Part shown: piece after piece, positions 28,810-32,692 of the stretch
How the letters are laid out: each line of letters starts with the position of its first letter
How positions within the stretch are numbered: position 1 is the first letter of the stretch
From: a bacterium
GTDB lineage: Bacteria > Bacillota_I > Bacilli_A > RF39 > UBA660
Length of the DNA stretch: 35,525 nucleotides
Direction of reading: 5' to 3'
Assembly (NCBI GenBank): GCA_029099845.1
Contig: JAQXOT010000008.1
Span: 1-35,525, forward strand
Position numbers and translations under genes: made by a program
Notes under the pieces: model-generated
Database searches by the model: none
The model's input: only the letters and a program-made list of their open reading frames with translations
What the model was told of the DNA's origin: nothing

Positions 28810-29922
28810 ATGGAATCAGAAAAAAACAATTTACGCCTAATTGTAATGGACAATTTCTTAGACTTTGGGAAGAAAGTTGACGAGCACTTAAAAAGAATGC
28901 GTGGAATAACCCAAAAAGATTTTAGCTTCATTGTTCCAATCAAACTAAGCCGTTTTGCTAGTGGTGAGGCCAAAGCCGAAATTTTAGAAAGTATTAGAGC
29001 TAAAGACGTCTTTATTTTAACAGATGTTACGAACTTCAGCGATACTTATAAAATGCATGGCTTTATTAATCATAAAAGCCCAGATGATCATTTTCAAGAT
29101 TTAAAAAGAGTAATTTCTGCAATGGATGGTGGAGCATCTTCCGTTCATGTAGTTATGCCATTTTTATATGAAAGTCGTCAACATAAGAGAAAAGGTCGAG
29201 AATCCATTGATAGTTCTATGGCTCTACATGAACTTGAAAATATGGATGTAAATTCTATAATTACTTTTGATGCTCATGACCCTAATATTAGAAATGCCCT
29301 ACAACATTGCTCCTTTGACAATCTTTATCCAACTTATTCAATTCTAAAGGATTTTATTGAAAATGAAAAAATTGACTTTGATAATCTTTTAGTTGTAAGT
29401 CCAGATACAGGTGCTGTAGATAGAGCCATATATTATGCTGATATGCTAGGAACTGATGTCGGTATTTATCATAAACGTCGAGACTATTCTAAAGTAGTTG
29501 ATGGTAAAAATCCAATTGTTGCTCATGAATATATGGGAGCTGATGTAAAAGGAAAACATGTTATCATAGTAGATGATATGATAGCATCAGGCCAATCAAT
29601 GTTAGATGTTGCTGAACAATTAAAAGCTAGGGGAGCTAAAAATATTTACTTGATAGCATCTTTTGCCTTATTTAGTGATGGTGAAAAAAGTATTCAAGCA
29701 TTTAATGATGCTTATAATAAAAAAATATTTACTAAATGCTATGCCAGCAATTTATCTTACGTACCAAATGAGGTCAAAGATAAGGAATGGTTCCATCTAG
29801 CCGACTGCTCTAAATATCTCTCAAAGTTAATAAATACTCTAAGTAACCACGAATCTATCAGTCCATTATTAAATAGTAAAGAAAAAATATTAGCCAAGAT
29901 AAAAGAAGTAAAAGAAAGATAA
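28810..29922 (+). CDS. prs: Ribose-phosphate pyrophosphokinase (PRPP synthetase)
   Basis: Makes phosphoribosyl pyrophosphate from ribose 5-phosphate and ATP, the precursor of nucleotides, His and Trp. 370 residues, longer than the usual 310-320. The FASGEAKAEI element replaces the common FSDGE. HDPNIRNAL, SPDTGAVDRA, the loop HKRRDYSKV and the PRPP loop VIIVDDMIASGQSM identify the family. The extra length is mostly at the C-terminus, after SYVPNEVKDKEWFHLAD. TAGGAGG precedes the ATG. It stands after the small ORF and its terminator, so it may depend on read-through. Confidence 0.92.
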   Translation: MESEKNNLRLIVMDNFLDFGKKVDEHLKRMRGITQKDFSFIVPIKLSRFASGEAKAEILESIRAKDVFILTDVTNFSDTYKMHGFINHKSPDDHFQDLKRVISAMDGGASSVHVVMPFLYESRQHKRKGRESIDSSMALHELENMDVNSIITFDAHDPNIRNALQHCSFDNLYPTYSILKDFIENEKIDFDNLLVVSPDTGAVDRAIYYADMLGTDVGIYHKRRDYSKVVDGKNPIVAHEYMGADVKGKHVIIVDDMIASGQSMLDVAEQLKARGAKNIYLIASFALFSDGEKSIQAFNDAYNKKIFTKCYASNLSYVPNEVKDKEWFHLADCSKYLSKLINTLSNHESISPLLNSKEKILAKIKEVKER

Positions 29923-29986: not shown

Positions 29987-30018
29987 AAAAAAACATGATT
30001 CTGACAAAATCATGTTTT
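29987..30018 (-). terminator. Terminator of the minus-strand structured RNA
   Basis: On the plus strand AAAACATGATT (29990-30000) and AATCATGTTTT (30008-30018) form a perfect 11-base-pair stem with a seven-base loop. The A-run at 29987-29993 supplies the U-run on the minus strand, while the other side has only four T, so it acts for the minus strand. Confidence 0.85.
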
Positions 30019-30334
30019 CGAGTTTTTAAACGGAAAACTACAAAGCAATTAATCATCTACACCGTTTCTTGATAACATTTAAGTATCTAAGAAACATAAC
30101 GACTTAATCACTAAATCTAAGTAAATGTCAGTACTTAGACGCAGCACCCTATTAACTGTGAGTTGCATCTCTCACTACGCGCGTACACTTAGATAGTAAT
30201 AGGATTATAGCCAAAGCTCATCACTCAACTAACTTTTCCAACGGCTTTCACTAATTTAATAGCTATCGACCAACCAACCCAGCAATGCAACACGATACGC
30301 ATAAACACGCCTGTCGATTATATTTCATATCTAA
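29987..30334 (-). ncRNA. Unassigned structured RNA of about 350 nt
   Basis: A minus-strand region bounded by a promoter (near 30341-30372) and a terminator. It is richer in G and C than its surroundings and has no coding frame I can support. Perfect or near-perfect stems in plus coordinates are 30197-30203 with 30148-30154 (7 bp), 30171-30175 with 30158-30162 (5 bp), 30132-30139 with 30116-30123 (8 bp), and 30084-30094 with 30065-30074 (10 bp with a bulged A). CGG/CCG (62-64 and 31-33 of 30000) extends to 6 bp. The repeats CTTAGATA and TATCTAAG allow alternative pairing. I could not place it as tmRNA, RNase P, SRP or 6S RNA. Confidence 0.65.
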
Positions 30335-30482
30335 GATAATATTATATTACCATGAATAAACTATTAAAGCAAGCATTTTTTTCAAAAAAATACAATTTTT
30401 TTAAATTTAAAAAATTATTCAATGTCTACAATGGTGTAAAAAAAATAAATATTAAAAATAAAACTATGTTTATAAAGAACTA
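30335..30482. other. AT-rich gap between the RNA gene and the 598-residue protein gene
   Basis: Apart from the two divergent promoters at its ends, this stretch has no coding frame and only homopolymer-like A and T runs (about 30375-30420). I see no repeat, site or RNA in it. It separates the minus-strand RNA gene from the plus-strand gene at 30517. Confidence 0.5.
30341..30372 (-). promoter_or_regulatory. Probable promoter of the structured RNA
   Basis: On the minus strand TTGCTT (30372-30367) stands 17 bases before TAATAT (30349-30344), and an alternative -10 TATAAT lies at 30346-30341. Transcription would begin near 30334-30337. Both -10 choices are in one AT-rich stretch. Confidence 0.55.
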
Positions 30483-30516: not shown

Positions 30517-32313
30517 ATGGAAAAAGAAAAAAAAGAAATAACAGAAAATTTAAAAGAACATGAAAATAATGCAGTACCAGCCGAAAATTTAAAAGATAAT
30601 ATTGAGGTATTAGATTTAAATGAACAAAAAGAAAAACCAGAAGAACCAAAAGTAGAAAATACAGAAAAGATAGCTACGAAATCTTTAGAAACAACAACAT
30701 CTGAAAATGTAGATATTGTAAAAAAAGAACTACCTCAATCAACACCACATGATATAGCTAATGTAAAAGATGAAAGTACTAACAATTCTAATATGGAAAA
30801 AGAAGTCAAGGTTAATAATACATCAAACGAAAAGCAAGAAAATAAGTTATCTCAAAACGAACAACCAATAGAAACTAAAAATGCTTCACCAATTGTTAAT
30901 CAAAATACCACTCAAGAGAAAAAAATTAATAATAAACCTACCAATAAAAAGATTAAAAATATAGATTTTATAATTGTTATATTAGGAATTTTATTAGTTA
31001 TATTAGTTATCGCTGGTTATAAATCATACCTAGAAAATTCAACTGTTCTATTCAAAACAACAATTAATAAAGGTTATAATGAACTTAGTGAATTACTAAC
31101 CGACTCTAAAGAAAAAAGCTTTGAATATAACTATGATGAGCCAATAGTAATAAATGGTAATCTAAAAACAAGTACTAATATGGAAGAACTAATTAGTTAC
31201 CTTAGTTATAATTATGACTTTAATATAGGTCTAGATCCTAAAACTAAAAAAATTAATTTAGACTTTGCCATGAATAATGAAAATGAACCTATTATAGACA
31301 GCTTATTTTACTTAACTAGCGATAAATTATATATAAAAGCTGACAAAATATATTCTCAAGTTCTATATTCAGATATTGATTATAATATTTTTGAAAAGCT
31401 AAATACAGAAGAACAACAATCTACCTATAAAGATATTGATAAACTAGTAGAAAAAATGGCAACTTACTTAAAAGATGCTCTTAATGATGCTGATTTTGTC
31501 AAAGAAAATGAAAAAATAAAAATAAATAATCACGAAATAAATGCTACAAAACATATTTATAAGATAGATTCTAATGAAGCCTATAGACTAGCAAAGTCTA
31601 TTAATAATTCTATTAAAGAAGATCAAGAATTTATTGAGATTTTAGCTAAAATTACTTCTACTAAAAAAAGTGAAATAGAAAAGGAACTAAAAGAGTATTC
31701 TGTTGATAAAGAAGATTATGAAGATATAGAAGAAGTTAATCTAAATATCTATACAACAGGCTTTTTTCCAAAAATATTAGGTATTGGAATATCAACTACT
31801 ACAACTAATATAACTTATTTTGAAGAAGATGATCGAGGAGAATTTAATCTTATAACAGATAAAACAACGATTAATGCCATCATCAAAGATGAAATAATAA
31901 CAGGAGATATAAAAGAAGCTGACAAGATAGTTGCTACATTCCAAGTAAAAACGGAAGAAAATGAAAAAAACAGTAAAACTATAATAGAATTTAATATGGC
32001 AGAAAGCACTACTAATTTTAATATCACTATAGAAAATAAAGAACTTACAAAAAAACAAGTAGAAACAAGTATAAATATCAATATAGGTATAGAAGATCAG
32101 GAAGATATAAAGACTATAGGCGTAGAATTAAAATATAATGCTGAAATCGGAAAAGAAGTAACTAAAATAGATACAGAAGTAGCAAAAGATATGAATACTT
32201 TAACTGAAGAAGAACAAGAACAAATATTTACTAATATTCAAAAAGTATTAGAAGTAACCCCTCTTAGGGCACTATTAACTACTGATAATAGTGAGATAGA
32301 AGAAACTTATTAA
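30517..32313 (+). CDS. Membrane-anchored protein of unknown function, 598 residues
   Basis: I do not recognise it. Residues 1-148 are polar, rich in Glu, Lys, Asn and Thr and likely disordered (KVENTEKIATKSLETTTSEN). A single transmembrane helix at about 149-170 (IDFIIVILGILLVILVIAGY) follows. The remaining 430 residues, probably outside the cell, contain alternating charged and beta-like stretches (IVINGNLKTSTNMEELISYL, FPKILGIGISTTTTNI). Orientation follows the lysines before the helix. GAGGTG precedes the ATG. It ends in a terminator. The low-complexity N-terminus makes distant homology hard to judge. Confidence 0.8.
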   Translation: MEKEKKEITENLKEHENNAVPAENLKDNIEVLDLNEQKEKPEEPKVENTEKIATKSLETTTSENVDIVKKELPQSTPHDIANVKDESTNNSNMEKEVKVNNTSNEKQENKLSQNEQPIETKNASPIVNQNTTQEKKINNKPTNKKIKNIDFIIVILGILLVILVIAGYKSYLENSTVLFKTTINKGYNELSELLTDSKEKSFEYNYDEPIVINGNLKTSTNMEELISYLSYNYDFNIGLDPKTKKINLDFAMNNENEPIIDSLFYLTSDKLYIKADKIYSQVLYSDIDYNIFEKLNTEEQQSTYKDIDKLVEKMATYLKDALNDADFVKENEKIKINNHEINATKHIYKIDSNEAYRLAKSINNSIKEDQEFIEILAKITSTKKSEIEKELKEYSVDKEDYEDIEEVNLNIYTTGFFPKILGIGISTTTTNITYFEEDDRGEFNLITDKTTINAIIKDEIITGDIKEADKIVATFQVKTEENEKNSKTIIEFNMAESTTNFNITIENKELTKKQVETSININIGIEDQEDIKTIGVELKYNAEIGKEVTKIDTEVAKDMNTLTEEEQEQIFTNIQKVLEVTPLRALLTTDNSEIEETY

Positions 32314-32404: not shown

Positions 32405-32692
32405 ATGTACGATAGAGAAACAAAAAAAGTAGTTATTGATGCGGGACATGGAGGAGATGATCCCGGAGCAGTAGGTAATAATTTACTTGAAAAAGATCTA
32501 AATCTAAAGGCTGCTCAATATCTATATAAACGCCTATTAGAACTAGGAATCCCAGCAACTATAGTTAGAAATCAAGACGAAACATTAGATAGAGAAGAAA
32601 GAATAGAAAGAATATTAACAGCATATGGAAATAGTCCAAATGTAATCCTAATATCCAATCACATAAATGCGGGTGGTCATAAGTTTAGTTAG
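32405..32692 (+). pseudogene. Truncated N-acetylmuramoyl-L-alanine amidase
   Basis: The N-terminal half of an Amidase_3 enzyme. VVIDAGHGGDDPGAVG with His15, Glu29 and His86 (ISNHINAGG) provides the three zinc ligands. A complete member continues for another 80 or so residues to the catalytic Glu (as in the intact gene at 18166, where it is Glu183). Here the frame ends five codons after HINA (GGHKFS, stop). The enzyme must be inactive. ATAGGTGATAAA precedes the ATG, so expression signals remain. The cut end marks the left edge of the following accessory segment. Confidence 0.85.

What the first reader, a model, noticed from the sequence alone, without database searches (positions are those of the whole stretch)
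29987..30372. Structured non-coding RNA of about 350 nt that I cannot assign
Seen: a minus-strand unit with a promoter, four strong local stems (7, 5, 8 and 10 bp) in a defined order, and an 11-bp terminator with U-run, in an otherwise gene-free 594-base gap. It is richer in G and C than its surroundings. The repeats CTTAGATA (three near copies) and TATCTAAG permit competing pairings, including one between the 5' end and the loop of the 7-bp stem (a possible pseudoknot). I found no tRNA-like end or tag frame of tmRNA, no GAGGAAAGUCC of RNase P and no SRP tetraloop pair. It may be a new RNA class or a diverged known one.
Basis: partly seen in the sequence, partly recalled or inferred. Interest (0 to 1): 0.72.

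Follow-up and report, generated by a model that had tools for sequence, protein, structure and literature searches.

The report
Self-pairing structured RNA of gut bacteria
The unexplained stretch is a real, free-standing RNA gene of about 350 bases from uncultured gut bacteria, a distant and full-length relative of a database entry (PGK RNA) that covers only its middle part and is labelled a gene switch; a self-complementary segment that keeps changing sequence yet stays self-complementary suggests that two copies of the RNA pair with each other.

Summary
Window 30337-29987 (minus strand) is an independent transcription unit conserved in two congeners, while its flanks diverge. No Rfam family reaches its cut-off; tmRNA, RNase P and 6S RNA lie elsewhere in the genome. 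At relaxed threshold RF03040 "PGK RNA" fits end to end (32.3 bits, cut-off 50.8). A covariance model built without the window's genus finds the window RNA as the only match listed in its genome (46.8 bits, E 1.2e-4). I collected 142 homologues from uncultured, mostly gut-derived Bacilli.

They show that RF03040 is only the core of a larger RNA. Most have their own promoter. The 5' end pairs into the core (P1), forming a pseudoknot with P2. The terminator loop is complementary to the P5 loop: CUGAUA/UAUCAG in 101 copies, CUGACA/UGUCAG in 9, never mixed. P3 is a perfect palindrome (8-16 nt in most) whose sequence changes while self-complementarity stays, including two adjacent bases that cannot pair within one molecule: a homodimerisation signature. 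Neighbouring genes vary in kind and strand, so RF03040's cis-regulatory label is not supported. Dimerisation and trans action are inferred; no RNA data were available.

The parts
30344..30372 (-). promoter: -35 TTGCTT (30372-30367), 17-nt spacer, -10 TAATAT (30349-30344); start of transcription expected near 30337
   Evidence: Read from the sequence; same layout in G001 and G002. Across 86 homologues the best upstream promoter scores 11.2 on average against 9.6 in shuffles; 62% reach 11.5 or more against 2% of shuffles.
29987..30337 (-). whole non-coding RNA gene, about 351 nt
   Evidence: Promoter and terminator bounds; conserved in G001 and G002 with diverged flanks
30328..30335 (-). P1 5' strand CUUAGAUA at the RNA 5' end
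   Evidence: 8 bp with 30195-30188; invariant in three species. In 86 homologues P1 own pairing score 17.3 against 11.6 for permuted partners, z 18.
30211..30327 (-). 5' peripheral domain (two stem-loops by MFE), variable in length and sequence between genera
   Evidence: two 1-nt deletions in the 5' half of G002 argue against coding
30197..30203 (-). P2 5' strand CCUAUUA
30188..30195 (-). P1 3' strand UAUCUAAG, inside the P2 loop: P1/P2 pseudoknot
30176..30185 (-). P3 palindrome UACGCGCGUA, proposed homodimerisation element
   Evidence: Palindrome kept with changing sequence in homologues; G002 carries UGCGUACGUA; self-duplex about -16 kcal/mol against about 0 for the hairpin; single copy in the window
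30158..30175 (-). P4 hairpin GUGAG-AGAUGCAA-CUCAC
30148..30154 (-). P2 3' strand UAAUAGG
30115..30140 (-). P5 hairpin, loop CUGACAUU (30131-30124)
30064..30095 (-). lineage-specific 3' hairpin GUUUCUUAGAUA../..UAUCAAGAAAC
   Evidence: region less conserved (78-84%)
30021..30025 (-). AAACU motif just before the terminator
   Evidence: AAACU lies downstream of the core in 140 of 142 homologues
29987..30018 (-). intrinsic terminator; loop UUGUCAG (30007-30001) complementary to the P5 loop (CUGACA/UGUCAG)
   Evidence: Loop pair exchange without exception: 101 + 9 matched, 0 mixed (one search adds L122 and L124)

Best explanation
The segment is an independently transcribed, roughly 350-nt non-coding RNA, homologous to RF03040 (PGK RNA), whose Rfam model is only the core. 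Supported by comparison: its own promoter and terminator; a P1/P2 pseudoknot that ties the 5' end into the core; a loop-loop contact between P5 and the terminator that ties in the 3' end; and a palindromic P3 element conserved for self-complementarity rather than sequence. Inferred: two molecules pair through P3 to form a compact homodimer with both ends protected. The dimer is a stable RNA acting in trans, most likely as a scaffold or regulator with a protein partner, and is not a leader controlling the next gene.
For: RF03040 fits the window core end to end at 32.3 bits. A model made without the window genus gives 46.8 bits and E 1.2e-4 in its genome, and 44.5 and 42.1 bits in the congeners. 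L061 links the two: it passes Rfam's cut-off and shares the window's CUGACA loop and core. P1: z 18 against permuted partners, with control segments scoring 9-11 against 17.3. P5-terminator loop: 101 + 9 matched, 0 mixed; the CUGACA form occurs in several genera (g1, g25, g74, g160, g22). Palindrome: mean 8.7 nt against 4.4 shuffled; tetraloop palindromic in 60 of 64; its two formal pairs, one between adjacent bases, covary with 29 double changes and none of 500 shuffles as high. No excess second copy of the palindrome in the same RNA, 10 seen against 15.4 expected. Gene context varies, with the downstream gene on the opposite strand in 14 of 77.
Against: No transcript, probing or dimer measurement was available. 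The window core misses Rfam's own cut-off for RF03040. A minority class lacks the UAUCAG terminator loop (16 CUGAUA members and others). In 29% of members the longest palindrome is under 8 nt, and some have no evident one. Many homologues lie between co-directional genes (52 of 77), so a local effect there is not excluded. The molecular function is unknown.
Confidence: 0.78

Rival explanations
1. Same independent RNA, but monomeric: the P3 palindrome reflects a DNA-level dyad or an unrecognised constraint, not RNA-RNA dimerisation.
For: No experiment shows a dimer; some members lack a palindrome of 8 nt or more.
Against: Sequence changes freely while symmetry stays, over about ten different central tetramers, which does not suit a protein site on DNA. 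A monomer hairpin does not need a palindromic tetraloop (60 of 64). Adjacent bases covary. The monomer hairpin is predicted to be barely stable.
Confidence: 0.16
2. Cis-regulatory leader or attenuator, as RF03040 is labelled in Rfam, controlling the next gene.
For: Rfam type Cis-reg; 52 of 77 members have both neighbours co-directional; a pgk-like gene lies downstream in L049, L075, L076 and L081 (named by eye).
Against: In the window the neighbours on both sides are on the other strand and the RNA converges on prs, ending in a strong terminator. The downstream gene is on the opposite strand in 14 of 77 members. Downstream genes are unrelated (by eye: pgk, murG, hup, rubrerythrin and others), and a gap between a spoIVA-like gene and hup holds the RNA on opposite strands in different genera (L051 against L054, L071, L072).
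Confidence: 0.04
3. A diverged known housekeeping RNA (tmRNA, RNase P, 6S, SRP).
For: Size and own promoter are compatible.
Against: tmRNA, RNase P and 6S RNAs are found elsewhere in the same genome and SRP RNA in both congeners; no such match at this site even at E 10.
Confidence: 0.01
4. Chance stems in a gene-free gap, or a small coding gene.
For: MFE is not significantly lower than in shuffles.
Against: Conservation, covariation and homologues. No long open frame on the minus strand inside the RNA, and G002 carries two separate 1-nt deletions in the 5' half.
Confidence: 0.01

Closest known systems
RF03040 PGK RNA (Rfam, type Cis-reg)
   Same: Homologous core: P2, P4 and P5 helices in the same order, GAGA..AACUC and ACUGAYA motifs
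   Different: Rfam's model ends before the terminator and starts after the 5' strand of P1. It lacks P1, the P3 palindrome and the P5-terminator contact, and is labelled cis-regulatory. The window core scores 32.3 against a cut-off of 50.8, and its P5 loop is CUGACA rather than CUGAUA.
OLE, ROOL and GOLLD RNAs (natural RNA-only homo-oligomers, PMC12286853)
   Same: Bacterial structured RNAs in which covariation supports intermolecular contacts, including kissing loops
   Different: Much larger RNAs with different folds; no Rfam match between them and this RNA; oligomerisation is measured there and only inferred here
HIV-1 dimerisation initiation site and the hatchet ribozyme palindrome (PMC7357161)
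   Same: Self-pairing through an exposed palindrome
   Different: Unrelated RNAs. The hatchet palindrome is described as not strictly conserved, whereas here self-complementarity is kept through many sequence changes.

Membership tests
RF03040 PGK RNA as defined by Rfam | score at or above the curated cut-off (50.8 bits) | tested here: not met
   Window core 32.3 bits; the related L061 reaches 51.4
RF03040 PGK RNA as defined by Rfam | consensus P2, P4 and P5 helices in order | tested here: met
   Full-length alignment 1-92; helices covary in homologues
RF03040 PGK RNA as defined by Rfam | cis-regulatory position upstream of a gene | tested here: not met
   Window neighbours are on the opposite strand; 14 of 77 homologues have the downstream gene on the opposite strand
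Wider RNA family described here (core plus P1, P3, terminator contact) | core found by a model that excludes the window genus | tested here: met
   46.8 bits, E 1.2e-4
Wider RNA family described here (core plus P1, P3, terminator contact) | P1 at the 5' end of the transcript pairing inside the P2 loop | tested here: met
   CUUAGAUA/UAUCUAAG
Wider RNA family described here (core plus P1, P3, terminator contact) | terminator loop complementary to the P5 loop, preceded by AAACU | tested here: met
   CUGACA/UGUCAG, AAACU at 30025-30021
Wider RNA family described here (core plus P1, P3, terminator contact) | P3 palindrome | tested here: met
   UACGCGCGUA
Homo-oligomeric RNAs (OLE, ROOL, GOLLD kind) | measured RNA-only oligomer | not testable with these tools
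   Needs in vitro RNA
tmRNA, RNase P, 6S, SRP | match to the Rfam model at this site | tested here: not met
   the genome's tmRNA, RNase P and 6S copies lie elsewhere, and SRP RNA is found in both congeners

The most novel reading that the evidence does not exclude
RF03040 is a fragment of a class of stand-alone bacterial RNAs that work as homodimers through a covarying palindrome, with both ends locked by a 5' pseudoknot and by docking of the transcription terminator onto the core.
Probability: 0.6. Interest if true: 0.82.

Novelty: new variant of a known kind. Interest (0 to 1): 0.68.

Why it matters
Natural functional RNA oligomers are described as rarely observed (PMC7357161), and OLE, ROOL and GOLLD only recently showed RNA-only assemblies in bacteria (PMC12286853). 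Here comparative data from one bacterial family point to a much smaller dimeric RNA hidden behind a database entry labelled as a gene switch. A terminator that is a structural part of the mature fold is also unusual to my knowledge. If right, the RF03040 model should be extended and its type changed, and a simple in vitro dimer test becomes possible.

Tried and rejected
BLAST with the RNA found only the genus; weaker hits in 29 other family genomes are short and look like chance, the one examined (L004) lying inside an ORF. MFE z-score gave no signal. Rfam low-threshold hits other than PGK (Plastid-psbA-2, SNORD30, SNORA29, MIR397, EF3314_EF3315) are partial or low-complexity and were rejected. 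Viral contigs hold no match to the core pattern. A class-wide sample found matches only in the same family. The paper that I recall as first describing the PGK motif (10.1093/nar/gkx699) is not held, and no held paper discusses PGK RNA in this sense. I did not assign a target, partner or ligand.

Full report
OBSERVATION. The gap between the prs-like gene (28810-29922, +; Pfam ribose-phosphate pyrophosphokinase domains) and the 598-aa ORF (30517-32313, +) holds a minus-strand unit. Its -35 (TTGCTT), 17-nt spacer and -10 (TAATAT) put the start near 30337, and an 11-bp terminator ends it at about 29987. Folding energy is no argument (z -1.26). Conservation is: in two congeners the segment from P1 to P5 is 94-96% identical, the terminator 93-95%, but the flanks only 42-51%. 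In G001 even the neighbours differ: a trypsin/PDZ-type gene on one side and an ORF that I read as an IS30-like transposase on the other (the window's own copy of the former is identified, the transposase by eye).

KNOWN CLASSES. Nothing reaches an Rfam cut-off in the window. tmRNA, RNase P and 6S RNA lie on other contigs of the genome (its 6S match is just under the cut-off), and SRP RNA is found in both congeners (G000 itself, 91% complete, shows none). At relaxed threshold the best match, over 30209-30117, is RF03040 PGK RNA, full length, 32.3 bits, E 0.06 over all Rfam. RF03040 proves to be at home in the window's own taxonomic family: over the cut-off in 13 of 145 genomes, and in none of 14 control genomes.

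HOMOLOGUES. A covariance model from 19 cores (A3, R1) finds matches in 90 of 386 family genomes (39 of 150 genera), usually one per genome and sometimes two or three in tandem. In a class-wide sample of 395 genomes all 15 matches fall in that same family. A pattern scan of 84,980 species genomes gives 68 stretches, all with titles of uncultured or metagenome-assembled bacteria (mostly Bacilli, Tenericutes or Erysipelotrichaceae), and viral contigs give none. To avoid circularity I built R2 without the window genus (71 sequences). It finds the window RNA at 46.8 bits, E 1.2e-4, as the only match listed in its genome, and the congeners' RNAs at 44.5 and 42.1 bits.

CORE STRUCTURE. On A5, 19 pairs in four helices are formed in 96.3% of cells. 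18 of 19 pairs have changes on both sides (shuffles 12.3), the covariation score is 0.567 (shuffles 0.190, none as high), and slid structures collapse to 30-46% paired. A5 was fitted to a model of this structure, so these counts lean towards it; A3, aligned by MAFFT without a structure, agrees.

5' END. Upstream of the core, beyond what Rfam models, most members carry a near-consensus promoter, often TTGACA-17-TATAAT. A few nucleotides after the -10 lies a segment complementary to core positions inside the P2 loop: P1, typically 6-12 bp. Its sequence changes radically between members (CUUAGAUA/UAUCUAAG in the window, CCUAGA/UCUAGG in L050, AUCUCGGU/GCCGAGAU in L062, ACUUAAUAGA/UCUAUUAAGU in L065). 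Own pairing scores 17.3 against 11.6 for permuted partners (z 18), and neighbouring control segments score 9-11. The permutation does not correct fully for relatedness; the control segments do keep it.

3' END. Downstream comes a variable stretch, then AAACU (140 of 142), then the terminator hairpin. In most members its loop reads UUAUCAG and the P5 loop CUGAUAA. In nine members (eleven with L122 and L124), from genera g1, g25, g74, g160 and g22 among others, both change: CUGACA with UGUCAG. The table is 101 matched of the first kind, 9 of the second, 0 mixed. A minority class has other loops, in some of which shorter complementarity (UGACU/AGUCA in L065 and L125) suggests the same contact.

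PALINDROME. Between P1 and P4 lies P3. In 60 of 64 four-base loops the loop is itself a palindrome. Over 142 members the longest palindrome in this segment averages 8.7 nt against 4.4 for shuffles, and 71% have 8 nt or more against 7.5% of shuffles. The sequences differ: ACAAUUGU, UACGCGCGUA (window), UAUGUACAUA (L061), UAUAUGAUCAUAUA (L065), AUAUAGCUAUAU (L125), AUACAUAUGUAU (L104). Within the window genus the central GCGC corresponds to GUAC in G002. Treated as formal pairs, the loop bases covary (96.2% paired, 29 double changes, score 0.637 against 0.146 shuffled). One of these pairs is between adjacent bases, which cannot pair in one molecule. The hairpin is predicted to be about as stable as the open strand, the self-duplex -10 to -17 kcal/mol. 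There is no excess second copy in the same RNA (10 against 15.4 expected). The straightforward reading is an intermolecular, homodimer-forming helix. This is inference until measured.

CONTEXT. Among 77 members with both neighbours seen, 52 are co-directional on both sides, but 14 have the next gene on the opposite strand. Neighbours are unrelated. A pgk-like gene follows the RNA in L049, L075, L076 and L081, which probably explains Rfam's name. In the same gap between a spoIVA-like gene and hup the RNA lies on opposite strands in different genera. (These neighbour genes were named by eye from their sequences, not by a search.) A cis-regulatory role as the general function is therefore not supported.

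MECHANISM. Supported by sequence comparison: independent unit, P1/P2 pseudoknot, P5-terminator contact, conserved self-complementarity. Inferred: homodimer, protected ends, trans action with an unknown partner. The closest functional analogues are natural homo-oligomeric RNAs (PMC12286853) and palindrome-driven dimers (PMC7357161). This is resemblance, not membership.

MEMBERSHIP AND NOVELTY. By Rfam's own cut-off the window RNA is not an RF03040 member, and Rfam's positional label does not hold for it. It belongs to a wider family of which RF03040 is the better-conserved part. The full-length architecture, the terminator docking and the covarying palindrome are, as far as I could search, undescribed; but the held library lacks the paper I recall as describing the motif, so this is not a complete check.

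Noticed in passing
L131 3002-3092 and 3316-3406; L118 3001-4021; L099, L102, L116, L130: Two or three diverged copies of the RNA stand in tandem in one intergenic region, most with their own P1 and a recognisable terminator.
   Followed up: partly
L124, 5' domain: The 5' domain holds three near-repeats of CCCGAGUAG..UAUUUGGAAA, a lineage-specific expansion of the peripheral domain.
   Followed up: no
window 32405-32692: An Amidase_3 gene stops after 95 aa (profile 1-78 of 174): truncated or broken gene, or an assembly effect.
   Followed up: partly
window 30517-32313: 598-aa ORF divergent from the RNA gene, with no Pfam match.
   Followed up: no
L002 739-1395 and 1941-3035: In G001 the RNA sits between an IS30-like transposase ORF (by eye) and the trypsin/PDZ-type gene, with the prs-like gene absent there: a rearranged neighbourhood with the RNA kept.
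   Followed up: partly
L065, L107, L114, L117, L119, L125-L128: A second class has P5 loops with UGACU or CGACUA and terminator loops CCAGUCA or CUUGUCA, perhaps the same contact with other sequences.
   Followed up: partly
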